IMG/VR virus record: IMGVR_UViG_3300028596_000009
Span: 102,824 to 166,823 of that record
Reading direction: 5' to 3' (one strand)
DNA from: a virus
DNA: 64,000 nucleotides
Shown here: one piece after another, positions 5,362 to 49,252 of the stretch
Layout: each line of letters starts with the position of its first letter
Numbering within the stretch: position 1 is the stretch's first letter
Program-made: the position numbers and the translations under genes
The notes under the pieces: generated by a model
The model's input: only the letters and a program-made list of their open reading frames with translations
Database searches by the model: none
Told to the model about the DNA's origin: nothing

Positions 5362-5390
5362 GGACCGCCCGGCACACAGTCGGGCGGTCC
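5362..5390 (+). terminator. Perfect 10-bp hairpin terminator
   Basis: GGACCGCCCG at 5362-5371 and CGGGCGGTCC at 5381-5390 are perfectly complementary with a 9-base loop. It closes the first left-hand operon and isolates the metalloprotease gene downstream. Confidence 0.7.
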
Positions 5391-5414: not shown

Positions 5415-6140
5415 ATGAAGAAGAGCACGGCGAAGAAGTCCACGGTCGTCATATCCATGCTGGGCGCCCTGCTGATGACGGCGGCCCCGGCCCAGGCTCT
5501 GACGCCCGGACAGGTGAGCAGCGGTACCGGCTGGACGCTCGGCTACTCCGACCAGGTCACCTCGATCGCCCCGGTGACCTACACGATCACCTTCGACTCG
5601 GTCGCCGCCCGCACCCGCCTCAAGCCGTACATGCAGGCCATCGCCACCCACACGCAGACCCTGACGCCGGGCACGACGTTCGTCGTCTCGGACACCATCG
5701 CCCCGCAGACGTACCCCGGCTGCCAGACCACGCGGACCATCTCGCTGTCCCTGTCGTACCGGCCGACCGGCCAGGCGGGCATGGCGTGGGGCGGCGCCTG
5801 CTACATGCTCAGCGACCACAGCCTGCACTCCGGCCTCATGCGCATCAACACCGAGTGGTGGTACCCGAACTGGTTCTCGTCCAACGCCACCACGAACGAG
5901 CAGTGGATCAAGAACGCGGTCATCCACGAGTTCGGCCACGCCATCGGCCTCGGCCACCCGAACAAGGATCTCGACAAGGACGGTGTCGTCGAGGCCCACG
6001 AGTGCGTGAAGAACACCGACGGCTGGCTCCCCGTCCTGTGCTCCCCGAACGGCGGCAGCCGCAACGCGAACGCGGGCAAGTGGACGTTCCTGGAGCAGGC
6101 GGGCGTGAAGATGCTGACCACCAACTACCAGTACCGCTGA
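5415..6140 (+). CDS. Secreted zinc metalloprotease, metzincin/matrixin-like (241 aa)
   Basis: An N-terminal KKSTAKKST stretch, a hydrophobic core (VVISMLGALLMTAA) and an APAQALT cleavage region form a clear Sec signal peptide of about 29 residues. Near residues 174-184 stands HEFGHAIGLGH, the HExxHxxGxxH zinc motif of metzincins (matrixin, astacin and related clans). It is followed directly by DLDKDGVVEAHE, which fits a 12-residue EF-hand-type calcium loop. Four Cys residues may form disulphides. No obvious Met-turn methionine follows the zinc site, so subfamily is uncertain. Own Shine-Dalgarno sequence (AAGGAAACGGAG), flanking hairpins on both sides and isolation from the operon suggest a self-contained accessory gene. 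The product should act outside the host cell; its substrate is unknown. Confidence 0.85.
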   Translation: MKKSTAKKSTVVISMLGALLMTAAPAQALTPGQVSSGTGWTLGYSDQVTSIAPVTYTITFDSVAARTRLKPYMQAIATHTQTLTPGTTFVVSDTIAPQTYPGCQTTRTISLSLSYRPTGQAGMAWGGACYMLSDHSLHSGLMRINTEWWYPNWFSSNATTNEQWIKNAVIHEFGHAIGLGHPNKDLDKDGVVEAHECVKNTDGWLPVLCSPNGGSRNANAGKWTFLEQAGVKMLTTNYQYR

Positions 6141-6149
6141 CCGCATCGG

Positions 6150-6170
6150 CCTCACGGACGCTCCGTGAGG
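6150..6170 (+). other. Nine-bp stem with a 3-base loop
   Basis: CCTCACGGA (6150-6158) and TCCGTGAGG (6162-6170) pair perfectly around CGC. It begins 10 bases after the protease stop and is the first of two hairpins in this gap. It could be an RNA processing or termination element. Confidence 0.45.
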
Positions 6171-6209
6171 TACGGTCGGATCCAGATCTGCACCCCCAGA
6201 TCTCCTCGT

Positions 6210-6244
6210 CGAACGGCCCGGCCCCCGACCTGCCGGGCCGTTCG
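6210..6244 (+). terminator. Strong 13-bp hairpin terminator
   Basis: CGAACGGCCCGGC at 6210-6222 and GCCGGGCCGTTCG at 6232-6244 form a perfect 13-bp stem with a 9-base loop. No long U-tract follows, as is usual in high-GC actinobacteria. It separates the protease gene from the glycosyltransferase gene. Confidence 0.65.
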
Positions 6245-6268
6245 CATGTCCAGGGATAGGAGCCGAGG

Positions 6269-7000
6269 ATGTCCGTCGTCGTTCTTGTGCCGTGGTCCGG
6301 CCGGTGTCCGCATCGTGAGGCTGCCTGGGAGTGGGTGGCCCGGTGGTACACGGAATCCCACCCTGCCTGGAAGGTGGTCCGTGGCGAGATCTCCGGTCCG
6401 TGGAGCAAGGCGACCGCCGTGGCCGAGGCGCTGAAGCAGACCGATGCCGACATCCTGGTCATCGCTGACGGGGACTGCGTGGCGCCGGACGTCGGCAAGG
6501 CCGTGTTCCATGTGGAGACGGGAACGAAGCGCTGGGCGATCCCGCATCTTCGGGTCCACAGGCTGTCCCAGGAGGCCACGGACAGGGTTCTGGCGGGTGA
6601 ACTCCCGCAGGACGTGGTGCAGACCCTGGACGACTACGACCAGCCTCCCTACCGGGGCATGGCGGGCGGCGGCATCACGGTGCTGCGGCGCGAGACCTAC
6701 CTCGAAGCCCCCATGGACCACCGGTTCGTCGGCTGGGGGCAGGAGGACCAGGCGTGGGCAATCGCCCTGAAGTGCCTCTTCGGCAACCCCTGGAGGTCCC
6801 AGGAGGGCCCACTGTGGCACATGTGGCATCCGCCGCAGGAGCGCATGTCCCGGGAGAAGGGATCGCTTCCTTCGTGGGATCTCTACAGCTCGTACCGCCG
6901 GGTCGCGGCGAACCGGACGAAGATGGCCGAGCTGCTCGATGAGCCCCGCAGGGTGGCCGGACAGGGCCCCGTGAACCCCGCCCGGCCAGTCACACCCTAG
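6269..7000 (+). CDS. GT-A fold glycosyltransferase (243 aa)
   Basis: Residues 1-12 (SVVVLVPWSGR) look like the first strand and sugar-nucleotide loop of a GT-A fold. A DGDC motif near residue 68 fits the metal-binding DxD, and GMAGGGITVLRRETY followed by FVGWGQEDQAW (about 131-160) fits the acceptor-side GGxxxxxR and W-x-x-ED motif of GalNAc-T/GT7/GT27-like enzymes. It should transfer a sugar from a nucleotide donor to a protein, teichoic-acid or DNA acceptor; the acceptor cannot be read from the sequence. No membrane segment or signal. It is convergent with the PKD-like gene, sharing the CTAG stop, which makes that protein one possible substrate (inference). Confidence 0.8.
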   Translation: MSVVVLVPWSGRCPHREAAWEWVARWYTESHPAWKVVRGEISGPWSKATAVAEALKQTDADILVIADGDCVAPDVGKAVFHVETGTKRWAIPHLRVHRLSQEATDRVLAGELPQDVVQTLDDYDQPPYRGMAGGGITVLRRETYLEAPMDHRFVGWGQEDQAWAIALKCLFGNPWRSQEGPLWHMWHPPQERMSREKGSLPSWDLYSSYRRVAANRTKMAELLDEPRRVAGQGPVNPARPVTP

Positions 7001-7560
7001 GACCCGGCAGGGAAGGGCACGACCACCTGGTAGCTGAAGTTACGTGCCGCGTTGTCGGCGTCCTGGACCAGCATGTCGAAGATGCCGCCCTCGCCGTACT
7101 CGTAGAAGGACTGGGTGACGCCGTCGCCCGGGTTGGTGCCGTTGGGGGAGCCGTCGCCGAAGGTGATGTTCACCGGCCCGTTGCCCTTGTTGTCGACGGT
7201 GATGAACGCCCGGCGGGATCCCGGCACATCGGTGGTGACCTCGACCTCCATGGGCGAGGTCGGGTCGACGGCCAGATCCGCCGCCTCGACAGTGATGTGG
7301 GTGTCGGTGAACTTCACCTTGGACACCTTGCCGTAGAAGACCTCGCGGCCCGAGCGGTCCATGAGGGAGAGGAACTCCCGGCCGGGCCAGGAGCGGGAGA
7401 CCAGGACGTAGGACTCGGCGTCCTCGCCCAGGGTGCGGCGGCACCACGAGACGCAGGCCGTCCAGGTGTTGTCGCCGAGGCCGACGGCGAGCGACGAGGG
7501 CTTCGCCTCGATCTTGGCAGGTATGCCACCTTCTGCGGTGATGTGCACCGTGTACGGCAT
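6997..7560 (-). CDS. Small PKD/Ig-like domain protein, possible virion decoration (187 aa)
   Basis: The start is placed at ATG 7560 because it follows AAGGAG at 7 bases; the in-frame extension upstream is not protein-like. The N-terminal part is a beta-rich domain of about 110 residues. The C-terminal part (about 113-187) has the PKD signature VNITFGDGSP ... FYEYGEGGIF, an Ig-like beta sandwich common on phage capsids and tails. It is a lone minus-strand gene within plus-strand genes. No signal peptide, so a virion-surface role is more likely than secretion. It could be a host-binding or decoration protein, and could be a substrate of the adjacent glycosyltransferase. Confidence 0.65.
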   Translation of the reverse strand: MPYTVHITAEGGIPAKIEAKPSSLAVGLGDNTWTACVSWCRRTLGEDAESYVLVSRSWPGREFLSLMDRSGREVFYGKVSKVKFTDTHITVEAADLAVDPTSPMEVEVTTDVPGSRRAFITVDNKGNGPVNITFGDGSPNGTNPGDGVTQSFYEYGEGGIFDMLVQDADNAARNFSYQVVVPFPAGS

Positions 7561-7736
7561 ACGGAACTCCTTCGTTTGACTGTGTGTCACCTTCCAGGGT
7601 GCCTCACAGGATCCGATAAGCAACGGGCTCGTTTGTGCGGTTCTGACGAAGCGTCGGGCGGTTGCCACGAAGGTCCAGACTGTCGGACGAAACGGTTATC
7701 CGGGTGCTGTCAGTGCTCGCATGTACGGTTCCTGAC

Positions 7737-13123: not shown

Positions 13124-14059
13124 GTGCCCCGCCGCCCCACCGGACGCGCACCGGGGCGGCCCAGGGGACCCGTCACAGCGGAAGGAAAGATCGAACGGGC
13201 CCGCACCATTCTCCCGGATGTGCGGGCCTTCCCGTTTCTGTGCAACGCCGTCGACCGCTCCCTGGCCGCACCCGACACGGTGCTGCGTCGTGAGCAGACC
13301 TCGGACTCCCGCAACGTGATTCTCGTTCACCACTACACCCCCGCAGAACGCGGTCAGATCCTGGCCTTCGCCTGGTGGGTGCACACGAACAGAAGCCGCT
13401 GGGACCGGGAAGAACTCCGAGCCGCCGTCATGATCCTGTCTCCGCTGATGATGTTCTCCTCCTCGTTCTTCGAGGAGATGTCAGGGATTCCCGGGTCGAC
13501 AGTCAAGAAAATCATGGTCAAGCCGCCCCAGGTTACGGCCGCCCGTGTCACCGGCACCTGCGACATGGTCGTCATCCACCGACTCCTGGAATCCGCAGCT
13601 CAGGGCATGGCAGAATACCGGGAGACCGTCCGGGAGTTGTCGATCGCCAAAGGGATTCCCGGCGCGATGCTGGCTCGAATCTCCGGCATTCCCAGGGAAG
13701 TTCTGATCCGTCCCGAGCGAGGAGTCAACTTCTTCGCCGAGAAGCCCGACCTCCTCATGGAGCGCGTCTGCACCGCGAACCAGCGCATCACGTACATCAG
13801 CAGGAACCCTCAGGAAAGGAGAGGATATGACCCACAGCCTGGTAATCAGCGGGCCGTCCGTGATGCCCTCGCAGGTACGTATCTGGGTGAATTCTGTGCT
13901 ACCCATGCTCCCGTACCCGACGACGGCGCGCTTCCGTACCACTTCGCAATCCCTGGGTTCCCCGTTCGGCGTCAGGGGGATCCCGTCGGAATCGACGACC
14001 TGCGAAGGATGCAGGAGTGGCAGATGCTCTACCACCTTCCGATTTCCGCCGCTCTATGA
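13124..14059 (+). CDS. Unknown protein overlapping the polymerase gene (311 aa)
   Basis: GTG start behind AGGAAAGAAAAG. The product is basic at its N-terminus (a Pro/Arg-rich stretch), then helical. Residues 110-220 contain two small helix-turn-helix-like units (MSGIPGSTVKKIM and ISGIPREVLI). No enzyme motif is seen. Its last 233 bases lie in another frame over the start of the polymerase frame. Protein-like sequence continues to the TGA at 14057-14059, exactly where protein-like sequence begins in the polymerase frame. Either the two genes overlap extensively or they are joined by a +1 frameshift. Function unknown; position suggests a replication accessory factor. Confidence 0.6.
   Translation: MPRRPTGRAPGRPRGPVTAEGKIERARTILPDVRAFPFLCNAVDRSLAAPDTVLRREQTSDSRNVILVHHYTPAERGQILAFAWWVHTNRSRWDREELRAAVMILSPLMMFSSSFFEEMSGIPGSTVKKIMVKPPQVTAARVTGTCDMVVIHRLLESAAQGMAEYRETVRELSIAKGIPGAMLARISGIPREVLIRPERGVNFFAEKPDLLMERVCTANQRITYISRNPQERRGYDPQPGNQRAVRDALAGTYLGEFCATHAPVPDDGALPYHFAIPGFPVRRQGDPVGIDDLRRMQEWQMLYHLPISAAL
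13812..13824 (+). promoter_or_regulatory. Ribosome binding site used to set the polymerase start
   Basis: AGGAAAGGAGAGG with its GGAG core 5 bases before ATG 13827 is one of the best Shine-Dalgarno sequences in the window. It supports initiation there, even though the following about 75 codons look weakly protein-like. Confidence 0.55.
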
Positions 14060-17000
14060 CCTGCGCGCCCGCGCCAACACCCGCGAGGTCATCCTCGCCA
14101 ACCTGCTCCGCGCAGTCCGCCACATCGCTGGGGAAGACATACCCAAGCCCGACGGCGTGTACCGGCTGCTCACCTCCCGCGAGGAAGCCGAATCCTGGAT
14201 CAAGGTCCGGCAGAAGACCCACGTCCTCGCCATCGACATCGAGGGCGACGGCAACCCCGACACCGTCCACCCCTCCCGCCACGAGATCCTGTGCCTCGGG
14301 ATCCACGACGGGGCCGAGACGGTCGTCCTGCCCGAGGAGCTGTTCCTTCCCGGACTGTGGCCCGAACTGGCCGACCTGCTCGAAGGTGCCGTCACCGTGG
14401 CACACAACGGCAAGTTCGACGCCGCCGTCCTCGGCTGGGTCCTGCGGGGAACGAACAACCCGATCCACATCACGCACGACACGATGCTCGCCCACTACGC
14501 CCTGTGGCCCGCCGGAGGCAACGACGACGAGCATGCCGACAAGTCCTCCACGGCCTTCGCGTACCACGGCCTGAAGCTCCTCGGCGTCCTCTACAACGGC
14601 GTCGAGAACTGGGCGCTGGACCGCTCCGAGTACGAGAACATGCGCTCCGTCCCTCTGAAGCGGCTGTGGAAGTACAACGCCGAGGACGTCCAGCACACCC
14701 ACCTGCTGCTCCAGTTCTTCCGTGACCAGTTCCGCCTGCGGCCCGAGCAGCTCCATGCCTACATGACCGTCTTGATGCCCGCTTCCAACCACCTCACGTG
14801 GCAGGAGGACTCCGGCGTCTGTGTCGATGTGCCCTACGTTCAGACCGAGCTGGTACCCGGCATGACGCAGGAGGTCGAAGACCTCACCCGGGACCTCATC
14901 TACAAGGCGAACCTGATCCTGCCCGGCCACGCGTGGCCCCTGGTCGCGCCCGCGAAACGGCTGCCGGGGGAGACTTCCAAGGAGGCCCGCCGGTTCAACC
15001 CGGGCTCGGCCGACCAGGTCCGCGTCATCCTGGAGAGCCAGGGCGTCGAGCTGCCCGTCGACCGTGAGTCGAAGTCGAAGAAGGGCTCCACGTCCAAGCG
15101 GACCCTGGAGCTGCTGATGCGCGACTCCCGCAAGGGAGACCCGTTCCTCACCAGGCTGCTGGAGCGGCGCAAGGTTGAGAAGATCCTCGGTACGTACGCC
15201 AACCCCCTGGCCACCCGGTCGCACACCAACCACCCCTACCAGGGTCTGCGTGTCTTCCCCGGACTCCACCTGCACAAGACGCTCACCGGCCGTCTGGCGT
15301 CGTCGAACCCGAACATCCAGAACCAGCCCAAGCTGGCCACGATCCGGCGCGCCTACATCCCCTCAGGGCCCGGCCGGGTGGTCTTCCAGGTCGACTACAG
15401 CCAGGCCGAGCTGCGGGTCATGGCCGTCCTCGGCAAGGACCGATTTCTTACCAAGATCTTCAAGGACCCCAGCCTCGACGTCTTCGACGGCATGATGCCC
15501 GGCATTTTCGCTGACATCGACTTCGAGAAAAACCCCGAGAAATACTCGGAATTGCGTCGTCCACTTAAGGCGTGCGTCCCGCTCGACACGATGATCCTCA
15601 CCAAGCGGGGCTGGCTGAAGCACGACGAGGTCCGCATCGGCGACGAGACGCCCGGTCTGACTGCCACCGGTCGTACTGAGTGGACTCGCATCAGCGCCAT
15701 CCACCACCCCGGCAAGCAGAAGGTCTACCGCCTCGGACACTCCCGTTGGAGCTTCCTGTGCACCTCCGACCACCGGTGGGCCGTAGGGAAGCGCAACCGC
15801 AGGGCGAACCAGTACGGCGAGCCGGTCATGGTCGAGGCCAAGGACATCACCAAGGACTCGGTGATCTACGTGGCCGGTGAGCTGGCGGATGAGAACATCT
15901 CCTTCCTCACGGACGACGAGGTGCGCATCCTGGCCTGGATCCAGTCGGACGGGTACCTGAAGGTGGCACAGTCCACCGGTGGCCCCTCCCAGGGTCGTGA
16001 TGGATCCAAGCGCCAGGTGAACGCTTCGATACAGCAGGCCAAGCCGCAGTGCGTCGAGGAGATCAAGGAGCTGCTGAGGGACGTTCCGCACGGCGTGGGT
16101 GTGCGTCCTGGAGTGAACCACGAGACGGCGTACGACTTCCGCCTCTCCAGCCCCTGGACGCGTGACCTGCTCAGCCGAGCCAGACTCCTAGACGGAGGGA
16201 TCGAGGACTTCGTTCTCCGGCTCCCGGCTGCCCAGCGACACATCTGGCTGGACACCTTCTGGAAGGCTGAGGGGCACATGAACGGCAAGGCCCGCTGCAT
16301 CACCCAGAAGCGCGGCGAGAAGGCCGACGCCATCGCCCTGGCGGGATACCTGTGCGGCTACCGGGTCAGCGTCACCACCCACACCAAGGGAAGCGGTGTC
16401 GTCAAGATCCTGCTCAGCCACGTGACCGACGTGGGCACCAACACCATGACCATGACCGAGCACTCCGAGGAAGAGGTCTGGTGCGTCACCACGGAGAACG
16501 GTAACTGGACCGCCCGCCAGGGTGACGTGACGGCCAACACGGGTAACTGCGTCTACGGGCTCGCCTTCGCCAGAGGTGCGAAAGATATCGCGGAAGACCT
16601 CGGAATGGAGACCGCCTACGCGCAGGGAATCATCGACGGCTTCCTCTCCTCCGCGCTCGGCGTGACCCGGTGGCGGCAGGACGTCATCGACCACATCCAG
16701 TACGAGATCCCCCTGGTCAGCCGTCTCGGCCGGTACTTCCTCCACCAGCCCGTCAACGACAAGAACCGCGACGACATCAACCGCTCCGCCCTGTCGTTCC
16801 TGCCCCAGTCCTCCGCCTCCGACTGCTGCCTGCTGGCCGCCGTGGAGCTGGGCAAGCACATCCGCAGCAACGACCTCGACTGGGACATGAGCGCCCTCAT
16901 CCACGACGCGATCATCCTCGACGTCCCGCAGGACCAGGTCGAGGAGGCGATGAAGGTCACCGGCGACTTCATGGTGGCGTCGGCGGCCAAGTGGTTCCCC

Positions 17001-17135
17001 GAGGTCCCGTTCGCGGTCGACGGCACATGGGGCTGGTCGTGGGCCGACTTCGACGACAAGAAGCTCCAGAAGAACATGAAGACCCTGACCTCCGACGAGA
17101 TCAAGACGGTCCGCCGCGAAGATCTGGTCGGCTGA
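13827..17135 (+). CDS. polA: Family A DNA polymerase with 3'-5' exonuclease domain and an intein (1102 aa precursor)
   Basis: Exonuclease motifs: AIDIEGDG (Exo I), AHNGKFDAAVLGW (Exo II) and YNAEDVQHTHLL (Exo III). Polymerase motifs: VDYSQAELR (motif A), RRPLKA...CVYGLAFARG (motif B, interrupted by an intein) and IHDAIILDVP (motif C, HDA in place of HDE). No 5' nuclease domain. After splicing the product is about 777 residues. It replicates phage DNA. The start is set by the Shine-Dalgarno sequence at 13812-13824, but residues 1 to about 76 overlap the upstream gene and look out of frame; convincing sequence starts at PLYDLRARANTREV near 14050. GTG codons further down are alternatives. Confidence 0.85.
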   Translation: MTHSLVISGPSVMPSQVRIWVNSVLPMLPYPTTARFRTTSQSLGSPFGVRGIPSESTTCEGCRSGRCSTTFRFPPLYDLRARANTREVILANLLRAVRHIAGEDIPKPDGVYRLLTSREEAESWIKVRQKTHVLAIDIEGDGNPDTVHPSRHEILCLGIHDGAETVVLPEELFLPGLWPELADLLEGAVTVAHNGKFDAAVLGWVLRGTNNPIHITHDTMLAHYALWPAGGNDDEHADKSSTAFAYHGLKLLGVLYNGVENWALDRSEYENMRSVPLKRLWKYNAEDVQHTHLLLQFFRDQFRLRPEQLHAYMTVLMPASNHLTWQEDSGVCVDVPYVQTELVPGMTQEVEDLTRDLIYKANLILPGHAWPLVAPAKRLPGETSKEARRFNPGSADQVRVILESQGVELPVDRESKSKKGSTSKRTLELLMRDSRKGDPFLTRLLERRKVEKILGTYANPLATRSHTNHPYQGLRVFPGLHLHKTLTGRLASSNPNIQNQPKLATIRRAYIPSGPGRVVFQVDYSQAELRVMAVLGKDRFLTKIFKDPSLDVFDGMMPGIFADIDFEKNPEKYSELRRPLKACVPLDTMILTKRGWLKHDEVRIGDETPGLTATGRTEWTRISAIHHPGKQKVYRLGHSRWSFLCTSDHRWAVGKRNRRANQYGEPVMVEAKDITKDSVIYVAGELADENISFLTDDEVRILAWIQSDGYLKVAQSTGGPSQGRDGSKRQVNASIQQAKPQCVEEIKELLRDVPHGVGVRPGVNHETAYDFRLSSPWTRDLLSRARLLDGGIEDFVLRLPAAQRHIWLDTFWKAEGHMNGKARCITQKRGEKADAIALAGYLCGYRVSVTTHTKGSGVVKILLSHVTDVGTNTMTMTEHSEEEVWCVTTENGNWTARQGDVTANTGNCVYGLAFARGAKDIAEDLGMETAYAQGIIDGFLSSALGVTRWRQDVIDHIQYEIPLVSRLGRYFLHQPVNDKNRDDINRSALSFLPQSSASDCCLLAAVELGKHIRSNDLDWDMSALIHDAIILDVPQDQVEEAMKVTGDFMVASAAKWFPEVPFAVDGTWGWSWADFDDKKLQKNMKTLTSDEIKTVRREDLVG
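15573..16547 (+). other. Intein in DNA polymerase motif B with LAGLIDADG endonuclease (325 aa)
   Basis: Begins at Cys 583 of the precursor (CVPLDTMILTKRGW) and ends at Asn 907 (DVTANTGN), with Cys 908 as the +1 residue. Block B carries TSDH, so it is class 1. The penultimate residue is Gly instead of His. Two dodecapeptide motifs of a LAGLIDADG homing endonuclease are visible (ILAWIQSDGYL and WLDTFWKAEGHM). Removing it restores an uninterrupted O-helix motif RRPLKA-CVYGLAFARG. The segment is coding throughout with no stop or frameshift, so it is probably active in splicing. Confidence 0.9.
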
Positions 17136-44647: not shown

Positions 44648-47600
44648 TCAGAACGGCGAGATCATCATGTCGCCATCCATGAACCCCTCCAGCTCCTCGG
44701 CCATGGTGTGCGCCGACTCCGCGTACATGTCGCCGATCTGAGGCCCACTCGCCACCGGGGCGGTCGCGTACGCCAGGGCATCGGCGAAGTCGGGGGAACG
44801 GCCATGCTTCGTACGCATCTCCTCCTTCGGCATGATGTACAGCTTCCCGTTTTTGAACAGGTAGAAGATGATCGCCAGATCGTCCTTGAGCTGCTCGTGC
44901 TCCATGATCTTCACCGAGCCGTTGCGCAGCATCTGCCGGAGCTGGTCGAACCAATACGCCCTCGCGTTGCCGTAACCGTGCACAGAACCGCCCACGTCCG
45001 TCGGAGCCGACGCGGAACCGTGCATCTCATACACCGAGTACCAGGCTTCGGGAAGCAGGGCGAGACGGGCGTTCAGGGTGTCGACGACACCGGCACCGAG
45101 ACCGACAGCGTCGACCCGGATCTCCACCCACGACGCCTTGAACTTCTCCTTCAGCTCCTCCGCCAGACGGATCACCTGGTGCGCGGAAGACGTCGTATCC
45201 GTACCCGACCAGGTCGCCTCGACCTTCGCGGTCCTGTTCATGTAGGAGACGACCACGTTCTGGTCCGCACCGAAACGGGCGACGTCGACCCCGAGCCGCA
45301 GAGTGCCGTGCGGGCCCGGCATCGGAACGTCGTCGAACGCTGAGGAGATGACCGCCGGAGGGAACAGCGAAGACTTCGAGACCTCGGGGAACTTGGCGTC
45401 GACCTTCGACATGTACCTCGGGTCGTCCTTGCCCCACGCCCGCAGGCGCTGCTCACACCACAGCTTCGAGACGAGGACGTCCTTCAGCAGCTCCGGCACC
45501 GGTTCGCCGGTGAAGTTCGGTGTTGAGGCGGCGGGTACGGACACCCTGTTCCACATGTCCGCCATCTCCGGCTTCAGGTACACCTTGCCGAACTCGGTGT
45601 TCCTGTCGTCCGGGTTTCCGATGGCGAGAATGCGGCAGCCCTCGGTGGTGGTGATGGCCTCGACACCGGTCCAGATCTCCTCCGGCACACCGCAGTTTCC
45701 GGACCAGAGGGTGTAGCCCTTCCGGCGAGTGAACAGCATGGCTTCCGGAGGTACGGAGGCGCAGTACACCATCCCCTCGTAGTCGATCTTCTTCAGGTTC
45801 TGCGGGTAGAACTTGATCTTCGAGTCTTCGCGGGGTCGGGTGATGACGTACCCGTCCACCGACGAGGTAGCGATGTGAGTCCCAAAGTCGGACTCGACAC
45901 CGGCAAGGCTCCGCTTCCGCACCACCGAAGGGCTGCCCGTCTTCAGGATCATCTCCTGAAGGTCGTCAGCCATCTGCGGTGACGAGGTGTAGATGATTCC
46001 CTGCCCCTGCTTCCAGTAGCCGTCACCCTTGAGGTAGGAGTCCAGCAGCATGCCGATCTGCCGCGCACTGGCCATGCGGGCGTACGTAGGCACTCGCTTG
46101 ACGAGGCAGCCATCTCCGAACTGAGCCAGATGGCGACCAAGCTGTGTGTCGGTGATGTGGACCTGCTTGCCCGTGTTCCGAGGTTTGAATCCCAAGCTTT
46201 CGGCCAGATCGAAGATCTCCTGCCTGACGTTATCGTCCTGCTGGGAGATGCCGATTCCGTAGACCTGACCACGATGCTTGATCAGGTGCCCTTCGCTCAG
46301 ATACCAGCCGAGGAAGGTCATCCAGTCGTCCATGTCGACGAATCTGGCCGGGAAGAACTTCCGCTCACTCGCATACTCGGGCAGCTCGAACTTCTCCTGG
46401 TCGGGGGCCGTCCAGGAGATCGTCTTCTTCATGTACTTGTCGGTCTTGCCCGCCAGCTCCTCCATCGGAGTCTTGCGCCAGGCAGTGTCCCGATTCCGGC
46501 TGCGGCCATGGAAGTACATGTCGTGATCGGGGGTGACGCAGAAGTTCGCGCCCTTCGCCTCGTACAAGTACATCGGACCGGTGTGCGGCTTCTTCACGAT
46601 CTTCTGAGGCTTTCGGTAGGTAGCCTCGTGAGTCGTCTGGTCCATGGTCAGGAGACGCTCATCGCCCGTCAGGTCGGCGAAGAGCTTCCAGCCGTCCTCG
46701 GTCATCACTTCGGTCTGGTCGTCGTGGCATGCCTCGTCGAGCACAACAAGGACATATCGTCGGTGGATTCCGTGGAAGGCGTGACGGTCACCGGTGGCGG
46801 GCTTGCGTCCGAATCCGAGTACCTGGCCCGAGTCCGACTTCCACTCGTCTCCCTGGGTCACGCGCCCGATCATCGGAAACCCGCGCTGCTGCGCCGTGGC
46901 GTGATGCTTCCGGATCTCCTCCCAGAGGATCTTGTTGACCTGGGCGTAGGTCGGGGCCGTCGAGACCACGATGGCGTCACCGGGCGGCCGGGTGTTGATC
47001 CACCAGCAGGCGAGAACCGAGGCGATCATCGAGTTGTGGGTCGGGATGCCTTCCTCGGTGCACAGGAAGAGATGGTCGAAGGCGTTGACCTGGATGCACT
47101 TCACGTCGCCGTCGGCGATGCGCTCCACCGAGACGATCTCCCACCCGCTCGGGCCCGGGTCGTACCGGTCGAGCTGGCGCTCCAGGGCCGCGTTCAGGGC
47201 AACAGCCCGGTCGTTCTCGGAGGGCAGCAGGTCGGCGGCTATTGGGGAGCAGACGGACAGTGTCCACGTCATCGACGCGTTGTGCCTGCGCTTGTGCAGC
47301 AGCGTGTGGATGCCGGATTCGGCCAGCGACTCCCTGACCCTGGTCAGTTCATCCGGCTGTGTCGTTCCGTGAGTGACCCACCGGAGCGCTGGACGGCCGG
47401 TGTCGTCGCACAGCCCCCTGCTCATCAGCAGGTCGGTCACCCAGAACTCGGCCCGCCACGGGTGGTCGGCTCGTTCCAGCCGGGGGATCCGGCCAGGGAT
47501 CACGAACTTCATGTTCCGGCTTGTCATGCTGAACAGGGCCCGGGTGTCGAAAACCTGGGTCAGGTGGTGCCATGCCCCGAAGTGGACTTTCTTCACCGAA

Positions 47601-48064
47601 GCGCGGGATGCGAAGAGTTCGGCCTTGGCTCGGCCACGGCTTACGAGGGTGGCCCACTTGTGGTCTCCGGATGCGACGACCTGGGTCTTGCGCCCGTCCG
47701 CCTCCAGTGTGATCCGGTAGCGGTCCTTGTGGTGAATCTCCGTGGTGGCCAGAACGAGGACGGGCTTTCCGTCCGATCCGTAGACCATGTCGCCGACGGA
47801 TATGTCACCCATCCGGCGGGGCCCTGAAGGTGTCGGTATGACAGTTTCGACATCAAGGGCCTTGCCGGTTCCGTGACATGAAGCGACCACGGTTCGCTTG
47901 TGGTTCACAACAGATTCGGCGATCTCGTTCTGCTTGCTCCAGAGGTGAACTCCCAGAACGTCGTGTGCCCATGCTTTCGGATCGCTCGCCCATACCGCCT
48001 GCTGTGCCTGACTGCGCAGCATCTCGGTCACGGAAGCGGCCACATCCCGGTCCGCTCTGCTCAC
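44648..48064 (-). CDS. terL: Terminase large subunit with two inteins (1138 aa precursor)
   Basis: The ATPase motifs are split by inteins: Walker A ASCHGTGK (residues 61-68) continues at Ser 345 with SMIASVLACWW, and Walker B VLVVLDEA (438-445) continues at Cys 791 with CGVPEEIWTGVEAI. After removal of 276 and 345 residues the mature product is about 517 aa, normal for terminases. The C-terminal nuclease shows RLGVDVARFGADQN, VDAVGLGAGVVD and DFADALAYA (metal-binding acidic residues). It packages DNA into heads and cuts concatemers. No Shine-Dalgarno sequence precedes ATG 48064, and no small terminase gene was recognised in the window. Confidence 0.9.
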   Translation of the reverse strand: MSRADRDVAASVTEMLRSQAQQAVWASDPKAWAHDVLGVHLWSKQNEIAESVVNHKRTVVASCHGTGKALDVETVIPTPSGPRRMGDISVGDMVYGSDGKPVLVLATTEIHHKDRYRITLEADGRKTQVVASGDHKWATLVSRGRAKAELFASRASVKKVHFGAWHHLTQVFDTRALFSMTSRNMKFVIPGRIPRLERADHPWRAEFWVTDLLMSRGLCDDTGRPALRWVTHGTTQPDELTRVRESLAESGIHTLLHKRRHNASMTWTLSVCSPIAADLLPSENDRAVALNAALERQLDRYDPGPSGWEIVSVERIADGDVKCIQVNAFDHLFLCTEEGIPTHNSMIASVLACWWINTRPPGDAIVVSTAPTYAQVNKILWEEIRKHHATAQQRGFPMIGRVTQGDEWKSDSGQVLGFGRKPATGDRHAFHGIHRRYVLVVLDEACHDDQTEVMTEDGWKLFADLTGDERLLTMDQTTHEATYRKPQKIVKKPHTGPMYLYEAKGANFCVTPDHDMYFHGRSRNRDTAWRKTPMEELAGKTDKYMKKTISWTAPDQEKFELPEYASERKFFPARFVDMDDWMTFLGWYLSEGHLIKHRGQVYGIGISQQDDNVRQEIFDLAESLGFKPRNTGKQVHITDTQLGRHLAQFGDGCLVKRVPTYARMASARQIGMLLDSYLKGDGYWKQGQGIIYTSSPQMADDLQEMILKTGSPSVVRKRSLAGVESDFGTHIATSSVDGYVITRPREDSKIKFYPQNLKKIDYEGMVYCASVPPEAMLFTRRKGYTLWSGNCGVPEEIWTGVEAITTTEGCRILAIGNPDDRNTEFGKVYLKPEMADMWNRVSVPAASTPNFTGEPVPELLKDVLVSKLWCEQRLRAWGKDDPRYMSKVDAKFPEVSKSSLFPPAVISSAFDDVPMPGPHGTLRLGVDVARFGADQNVVVSYMNRTAKVEATWSGTDTTSSAHQVIRLAEELKEKFKASWVEIRVDAVGLGAGVVDTLNARLALLPEAWYSVYEMHGSASAPTDVGGSVHGYGNARAYWFDQLRQMLRNGSVKIMEHEQLKDDLAIIFYLFKNGKLYIMPKEEMRTKHGRSPDFADALAYATAPVASGPQIGDMYAESAHTMAEELEGFMDGDMMISPF
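45695..46729 (-). other. Intein 2 in terminase Walker B, class 1 with LAGLIDADG endonuclease (345 aa)
   Basis: Starts at Cys 446 (CHDDQTEVMTEDGW) and ends at Asn 790 (GYTLWSGN) with Cys 791 as +1 nucleophile. Block B contains TPDH. Two LAGLIDADG motifs are seen (FLGWYLSEGHL and MLLDSYLKGDGYW). The flanks VLVVLDEA-CGVPEEIW become continuous after splicing, restoring Walker B. Penultimate residue is Gly. Frame intact throughout. Confidence 0.9.
47033..47860 (-). other. Intein 1 in terminase Walker A, apparent class 3 (276 aa)
   Basis: Starts at Ala 69 (ALDVETVIPTPSGPRRMGD) immediately after Lys of GxGK, ends PTHN with Ser 345 as +1. The N-terminal residue is Ala, not Cys/Ser/Thr. The three residues diagnostic of class 3 are found: Trp in block B (SGDHKW), Cys in block F (VKCIQV) and Thr in block G (PTHN). 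No clear LAGLIDADG motif; about 130 residues in the middle are of unknown type. Splicing would rejoin CHGTGK with SMIAS. Confidence 0.85.
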
Positions 48065-48379: not shown

Positions 48380-49252
48380 TCAGTCCTTGCGTGCTTCGAG
48401 GGCGGCTATGCGCTGGGTCAGCTTGTCGATCTTGGTGTTCAGGTTGGTGATGAGGGTGTGCACCTGAACGAGGTAGCCGTACGCATCGGGGATGCGCTTG
48501 CCCGCCTCGATCGATTCCGCGTCGGCGTTCGCGTTGCGGTACGCCCAGAACTCGTAGGGCTCCATGTCGTTCTCCTCGGGGGTGGTCGGAGGGGTGGTCG
48601 GCTTCCCGGGGCTCCAGGAGGCCGGGTGGAGGAGACGCTCCTCGATACGGGTGCGCAGGCCCGGCATGGCCACGACGTCGCCCGGCCCCTTGGGGTCGGA
48701 CTTCCAGTCGGACCACTCCAGGTGACCGATGGTGGACTTGTGTGTCCAGCCGTGTGCCCGGCACAGAGCAGCCGACGCGCGGACCATCGCCTCGACCTGA
48801 GCGGCGGGCCACGGGTCCACGCCGTCGCCCAGGTTCTCGCACTCGAACCCGTAGAAGTGTGCGTTGCCGTCGGTCGCGCCGGACTCGCCGTCGTGCTTGT
48901 CAGGTGCGGGCGGGCGGGTGCCGTAGTCCTCGTTGATAACGGCGTTCAGTACGTCCGGATCTCCGCCACCCGCGTGGTTGGCGCGCCCATGGCCGACGAG
49001 GTGAACCGTTCCGTCACGACGGATGACGCCGTGGCAGAGCGGGCCGGGGAGGGTGCCGGTGCCGTTGAAGCACATCGACACGGCGGACATGGTCTTCGGG
49101 GTGACGGTGTGGTGGAGCATCACACCGTTCACCGGACCCCAGGCTCCCTTGTGGTTCCTGTTGTTGGTCTGCCAGCCGGGGGTCTCGATGACAGTGACGC
49201 CTTCGGCCCGGAGTGCGGAGAGCAGAACGGATGCGGTCAGCGGAGTGCTCAT
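48380..49252 (-). CDS. Endolysin, N-acetylmuramoyl-L-alanine amidase (290 aa)
   Basis: Residues about 40-205 are an Amidase_2/PGRP domain: VMLHHTVT (zinc His), HLVGHGRANHAGGGD, FYGFECENLGDG, THKSTIGHLEWSDWKSDPKGPG (His and Lys/Asp near the active zinc). It cleaves the amide bond between MurNAc and L-Ala in peptidoglycan. The C-terminal region is a Pro-rich linker and a coiled-coil (NLNTKIDKLTQRIAALEARKD) without a recognisable wall-binding module. It is separated from its holin by the terminase gene. Confidence 0.9.
   Translation of the reverse strand: MSTPLTASVLLSALRAEGVTVIETPGWQTNNRNHKGAWGPVNGVMLHHTVTPKTMSAVSMCFNGTGTLPGPLCHGVIRRDGTVHLVGHGRANHAGGGDPDVLNAVINEDYGTRPPAPDKHDGESGATDGNAHFYGFECENLGDGVDPWPAAQVEAMVRASAALCRAHGWTHKSTIGHLEWSDWKSDPKGPGDVVAMPGLRTRIEERLLHPASWSPGKPTTPPTTPEENDMEPYEFWAYRNANADAESIEAGKRIPDAYGYLVQVHTLITNLNTKIDKLTQRIAALEARKD

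What the first reader, a model, noticed from the sequence alone, without database searches (positions are those of the whole stretch)
5415..6140. Phage-encoded secreted metzincin-like protease
A signal peptide, HEFGHAIGLGH and an EF-hand-like DLDKDGVVEAHE give a complete secreted zinc protease candidate, in a self-contained gene between hairpins. Secreted metalloproteases are rare in phage genomes. It could degrade surface proteins, free phage from aerial or spore-surface layers, or act on host competitors.
Basis: partly seen in the sequence, partly recalled or inferred. Interest (0 to 1): 0.78.

Follow-up and report, generated by a model that had tools for sequence, protein, structure and literature searches.

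The report
Phage-borne secreted Streptomyces zinc protease
This gene, in a large virus that very probably infects Streptomyces bacteria, encodes an intact-looking zinc protease exported from the host cell; it belongs to an unnamed family that recurs in phage-plasmids and prophages, sometimes beside the cell-bursting genes, so it probably helps the virus act on the host surface, although its target is unknown.

Summary
ORF 5415-6140 (241 aa) has a Sec-type signal peptide (cleavage predicted after A28), HEFGHAIGLGH, an EF-hand-like loop and flanking hairpins. An AlphaFold model (pLDDT 84, pTM 0.81) has a metzincin fold closest to matrix metalloproteinases (Z 12.6). No curated family matches above cutoff.

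The gene sits at the edge of a replication block shared with Kradal/Kela-type Streptomyces phages, which lack it; none of 50,697 phage records encodes it. Homologues are not rare: they occur in 15 of 34 Streptomyces-type phage-plasmids of one lineage, in further viral contigs, and on Streptomyces chromosomes. All 63 members compared keep HExxHxxGxxH. In one prophage-like contig the protease gene overlaps the endolysin start (ATGA) with a holin next; in two others it lies a few genes past the endolysin.

Best reading: an exported, probably Ca-stabilised metzincin-like protease carried as a mobile accessory gene, acting outside the host, most likely as an accessory lysis/surface-remodelling factor like Listeria phage Mtz. 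The enzyme assignment is strong; the role is inferred. In this phage the endolysin lies 42 kb away and no TIMP-like partner was found, so interference with competing phages or a host-benefit role stay open. Unusual: Leu replaces the near-universal Met-turn Met.

The parts
5415..6140 (+). Secreted metzincin-like protease gene, 241 aa
5415..5498 (+). Signal peptide, residues 1-28, predicted cleavage after AQA
   Evidence: hydrophobicity and AxA motif; sequence-based heuristic, no dedicated predictor was available
5925..5957 (+). HEFGHAIGLGH zinc-binding/catalytic motif (H171, E172, H175, H181)
   Evidence: HExxHxxGxxH in 63 of 63 family members
5967..6002 (+). EF-hand-like loop D185-E196 (DLDKDGVVEAHE), just after the third His
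   Evidence: PROSITE EF-hand positions 1-12 met; loop absent in about half of the family
6030..6041 (+). Met-turn equivalent P206-V-L208-C209; Leu instead of Met
   Evidence: Met in 55 of 63 relatives, Leu in 7, Glu in 1; C197 and C209 always occur together or not at all, suggesting a disulfide
5362..5390 (+). Hairpin upstream of the gene
   Evidence: z -6.1
6141..6179 (+). Hairpin just after the stop codon
   Evidence: z -4.9
6207..6248 (+). Second downstream hairpin
   Evidence: z -4.3
6269..7000 (+). Glycosyltransferase, first gene of the replication block conserved in Kradal/Kela phages (44% identity); marks the edge next to which the protease sits
48380..49252 (-). Endolysin of this phage (amidase), about 42 kb from the protease

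Best explanation
An intact metzincin-fold zinc endopeptidase is made in the infected host, exported by the Sec pathway, its signal peptide removed after A28, and folded outside the membrane with zinc on H171/H175/H181, E172 as general base, one or two disulfides and probably one calcium in the EF-like loop (enzyme identity about 0.9; supported by sequence and model, not by assay). It is a mobile accessory ('moron') gene of an unnamed Streptomyces metzincin family. It most likely cleaves proteins of the Streptomyces envelope or mycelial surface and so eases lysis and virion release, as shown for the phage-origin metzincin Mtz of Listeria (role inferred, about 0.4).
For: Fold: pLDDT 84, pTM 0.81; VIA Z 12.6 to MMP-7, top rows nearly all MMPs; Foldseek hits serralysins, karilysin, snapalysin. 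Motif invariant in 63 of 63 members; purifying selection. Signal peptide in the great majority. Mobile: absent in Kradal and Kela beside an otherwise conserved block; nearest relatives lie on phage-plasmids and a viral contig (100/100 support). Lysis context: L079 has tail genes, then protease, amidase endolysin (ATGA overlap) and holin; L034 and L078 have endolysin, small membrane protein, collagen-like protein, then protease; L077 has an endolysin 1.7 kb away. Precedent: PMC8235301.
Against: In the window phage the gene lies in the replication arm, 42 kb from the endolysin and on the other strand. In the one phage-plasmid read across its late region the copy is also far from the late genes. 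No lipoprotein/TIMP-like partner was found. Met-turn Met is Leu, which impaired PrtC but hardly MMP-2 (PMC1266349). No activity or expression data.
Confidence: 0.5

Rival explanations
1. Interference with competitors: the exported protease attacks tail proteins of other phages or their surface receptors, giving superinfection exclusion outside the cell.
For: Replication-side location in this phage and presence on phage-plasmids kept as plasmids fit a pre-lysis or lysogen role. A secreted Salinispora protease expressed in S. coelicolor lowers phage titres extracellularly, with escape mutations in a tail-associated protein (PMC13175485).
Against: That protease was not shown to be a metzincin and its effect took days; endolysin-linked copies of the present family fit lysis better.
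Confidence: 0.2
2. Host-benefit or developmental gene: the phage or phage-plasmid carries a host exoprotease that helps nutrition, mycelium turnover or sporulation-linked dispersal of the carrier.
For: Chromosomal homologues without phage-plasmid-like neighbours exist, including a host family fused to a ricin-type lectin. pSAM1, which carries a copy, is strongly expressed in a sporulation-promoting medium (PMC11302927).
Against: The window phage shows no integrase or ParA, so a long lysogenic stay is unproven; the expression data are for the plasmid, not this gene.
Confidence: 0.2
3. Catalytically weak or decoy metzincin: Leu at the Met-turn marks loss of activity.
For: Window copy and 6 relatives carry Leu, one Glu.
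Against: Zinc ligands and catalytic Glu are invariant in all 63 members; dN/dS well below 1; MMP-2 Met-to-Leu keeps activity.
Confidence: 0.1

Closest known systems
Mtz of the Listeria phage-origin mtz-tim pair (PMC8235301)
   Same: Small secreted metzincin with Sec/SPI signal, found in prophages next to holin-lysin, accessory gene
   Different: Mtz acts with a TIMP-like lipoprotein; none found here; the window copy is not in the lysis region; direct sequence comparison was not done
Matrixins (M10A, MMP-7, karilysin)
   Same: Best fold match, HExxHxxGxxH with His as third ligand
   Different: 11-16% identity; Pfam M10 17.7 bits against cutoff 24; EF-like loop after the third His; Leu in place of the Met-turn Met
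Snapalysin (M7), the Streptomyces small metzincin
   Same: Streptomyces, secreted, minimal metzincin domain; Foldseek match
   Different: About 12% identity; snapalysin uses Asp as third ligand (general knowledge)
Secreted anti-phage protease of Salinispora mooreana (PMC13175485)
   Same: Exported actinobacterial protease tested in Streptomyces
   Different: Bacterial gene; no mention of a metalloprotease in the text; anti-phage effect with escape through a tail protein

Membership tests
Metzincin clan | HExxHxxGxxH/D zinc motif | tested here: met
   HEFGHAIGLGH; 63 of 63 family members
Metzincin clan | Metzincin fold | tested here: met
   Model pLDDT 84, pTM 0.81; Z up to 12.6 over residues 39-236
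Metzincin clan | Met in the Met-turn, at family level | tested here: met
   Met in 55 of 63 members at the aligned P-x-M position
Metzincin clan | Met in the Met-turn, in this protein | tested here: not met
   Leu208 in PVLC; therefore called metzincin-like, a natural Met-to-Leu variant of a family that otherwise meets the feature
Metzincin clan | Zinc-dependent endopeptidase activity | not testable with these tools
   needs recombinant enzyme
Matrixin (Pfam PF00413) | Score above curated cutoff | tested here: not met
   17.7 bits against 24
Snapalysin (M7) | Asp as third zinc ligand | tested here: not met
   His181; Asp in M7 is from general knowledge
Listeria Mtz-Tim system | Secreted metzincin on a phage element | tested here: met
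Listeria Mtz-Tim system | Adjacent TIMP-like lipoprotein partner | tested here: not met
   No lipoprotein or second credible exported protein in the window by heuristic scan
Listeria Mtz-Tim system | Next to holin-endolysin | tested here: not met
   42 kb away in the window phage; met in relative L079, near in L034 and L078
EF-hand | PROSITE EF-hand loop pattern, 13 positions | tested here: not met
   Positions 1-12 met, position 13 Cys; some relatives meet all 13; calcium binding untested; pattern quoted from general knowledge

The most novel reading that the evidence does not exclude
A lineage of Streptomyces phages and phage-plasmids uses an exported, calcium-stabilised metzincin as an extracellular weapon against rival phages (or their receptors), a form of superinfection exclusion acting outside the cell.
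Probability: 0.15. Interest if true: 0.75.

Novelty: new variant of a known kind. Interest (0 to 1): 0.52.

Why it matters
Exported phage proteases are hardly studied. A protease family carried by 15 of 34 related Streptomyces-type phage-plasmids, labelled 'hypothetical protein' in nearly all records, and in places sitting inside lysis cassettes, offers a testable route to how phages leave or remodel multicellular mycelium. It also supplies natural Met-turn Leu variants of a residue described in the literature as absolutely conserved in metzincins.

Tried and rejected
Named-family assignment: Pfam, NCBIfam and PHROGs give only sub-cutoff or no hits. Pattern scan of IMG/VR with the single protein found nothing; the 16-row alignment was too diverse to scan with; 6- and 8-row alignments worked. 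tblastn of phage records with the window protein and with the L079 and L044 copies: no match. IMG/VR relatives of the window phage were sought by glycosyltransferase and RecT: none. Kradal gp74, the gene just before the glycosyltransferase there, is unrelated. Intrinsic terminators: none with a T-run on the + strand. L027-L029, L045, L046 share only a short stretch around HExxH and were left out. A link to the S. ambofaciens phage Samy was dropped: pSAM1, which carries the homologue, is a separate element.

Full report
Observation. The ORF at 5415-6140 is real and as described. It starts with a classic Sec signal peptide, holds HEFGHAIGLGH and a 12-position EF-hand match, and is flanked by strong hairpins that lack T-runs. 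It was the only credible exported protein found in the window by a heuristic scan. Its GC3 of 0.97 is among the two highest of 36 window genes compared (mean of the others 0.84).

Setting. The window is the end of a 166.8 kb virus record with portal, head protease, terminase, tape measure and tail fibre genes. DNA similarity over the first 25 kb is weak and only to six Streptomyces phages such as Kradal, Satis and Kela of about 185 kb. The host is therefore inferred to be Streptomyces, not shown. The block glycosyltransferase, Cas4-like exonuclease, RecT, primase, DNA polymerase, RuvC is colinear with Kradal and Kela. No ORF of the window before the glycosyltransferase has a match in the equivalent flanks of those two phages, and the gene just before the glycosyltransferase in Kradal is unrelated. 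So the protease is an accessory gene at the edge of a conserved block. No integrase or ParA was found.

Family. tblastn found no copy in 50,697 phage records, but 15 Streptomyces plasmids of 87-94 kb carry one at 27-59% identity. One was read in enough length to show terminase, capsid, tape measure and tail genes. A terminase search returned 34 Streptomyces/Kitasatospora records at 58% identity or more, and all 15 carriers are among them. Related loci came from viral contigs and genomes. In a draw of 295 genomes of one genus, 30 have a match at 1e-15; about half of these are a longer host protein with a C-terminal ricin-type lectin domain. The tree puts the window protein with two phage-plasmid copies and one viral contig at full support, and phage-plasmid copies do not form one clade, so the gene has moved between replicons. 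Chromosomal copies in L080-L086 and L088 have no other gene resembling the phage-plasmid set nearby.

Enzyme. All 63 catalytic domains keep HExxHxxGxxH. The AlphaFold model has pLDDT 84 and pTM 0.81; structural matches are metzincins, best MMPs at Z 12.6, rmsd 2.8 over 144 residues. Viral predicted structures include other phage M10-like proteins. The EF-like loop follows the third His and is missing in about half of the family. C197 and C209 occur together or not at all (read), as expected of a disulfide. At the Met-turn position 55 members have Met, 7 including the window have Leu and one Glu. Met-to-Leu leaves MMP-2 nearly unaffected but impairs PrtC (PMC1266349). dN/dS is 0.15 to 0.42 for close pairs and up to 0.66 for distant ones. 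Zinc geometry was not measured because model coordinates were not at hand.

Role. In contig L079 the order is tail genes, protease, amidase endolysin, holin, with the protease stop and endolysin start overlapping as ATGA. In L034 (GH25 endolysin) and L078 (amidase endolysin) a small membrane protein and a collagen-like protein separate the endolysin from the protease; L077 has an endolysin 1.7 kb away. In L032 and L035 the gene lies a little before the terminase small subunit. Listeria Mtz, a secreted metzincin found in prophages downstream of holin-lysin, raises sensitivity to phage lysis together with Tim (PMC8235301). This makes accessory lysis the best-supported role for the family. For the window copy it is weaker: the endolysin is 42 kb away and no Tim-like partner was found. 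A secreted Salinispora protease that lowers phage titres in S. coelicolor cultures (PMC13175485) keeps the anti-competitor reading alive, and chromosomal homologues keep a host-benefit reading alive.

Verdict. Observation confirmed; the enzyme class is well supported; the role is an inference. It is a new variant of a known kind: an unnamed metzincin family, mobile among Streptomyces phages, phage-plasmids and chromosomes.

Noticed in passing
L007, L008, L009, L011, L017, L039, L040, L042 (phage-plasmid copies): One well-supported clade of eight phage-plasmid copies has no recognisable signal peptide (maximum hydrophobicity 0.25-1.37 against 1.8-3.0 elsewhere), although its nearest chromosomal relatives have one; C197/C209 are also lost.
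   Followed up: partly
window 13827-17135: DNA polymerase ORF (1102 aa) is far longer than the relative in Kradal (about 654 aa) and its DNA_pol_A match is split in two stretches, with an intein-like insert (CVPLDTMILTKRGWL ... NTGNCVYG).
   Followed up: partly
window 44648-48064 (-): Terminase large subunit is 1138 aa, with terminase matches only at residues 36-148 and 793-1104 and a LAGLIDADG match at 671-718, suggesting a large intein or homing-endonuclease insert.
   Followed up: partly
window 6997-7668 (-): Reverse-strand ORF between glycosyltransferase and exonuclease, absent at that place in Kradal and Kela; PKD-like GDGSPNGTNPGDG stretch, no PHROG match.
   Followed up: partly
L006 3278-4324, L007 8083-9135, L002 14547-15596: Phage-plasmids carry a PhlD/type III polyketide synthase-like gene beside a helix-turn-helix regulator; the L006 copy matches chalcone/stilbene synthase.
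   Followed up: partly
L044 6001-6726: A diverged copy (about 29% identity) in a 129.9 kb metagenomic viral contig with low GC3, unlike Streptomyces.
   Followed up: no
L060-L076: Streptomyces chromosomal homologues of about 440-570 aa with a C-terminal ricin-type beta-trefoil lectin domain, apparently host metzincin-lectin proteins.
   Followed up: partly
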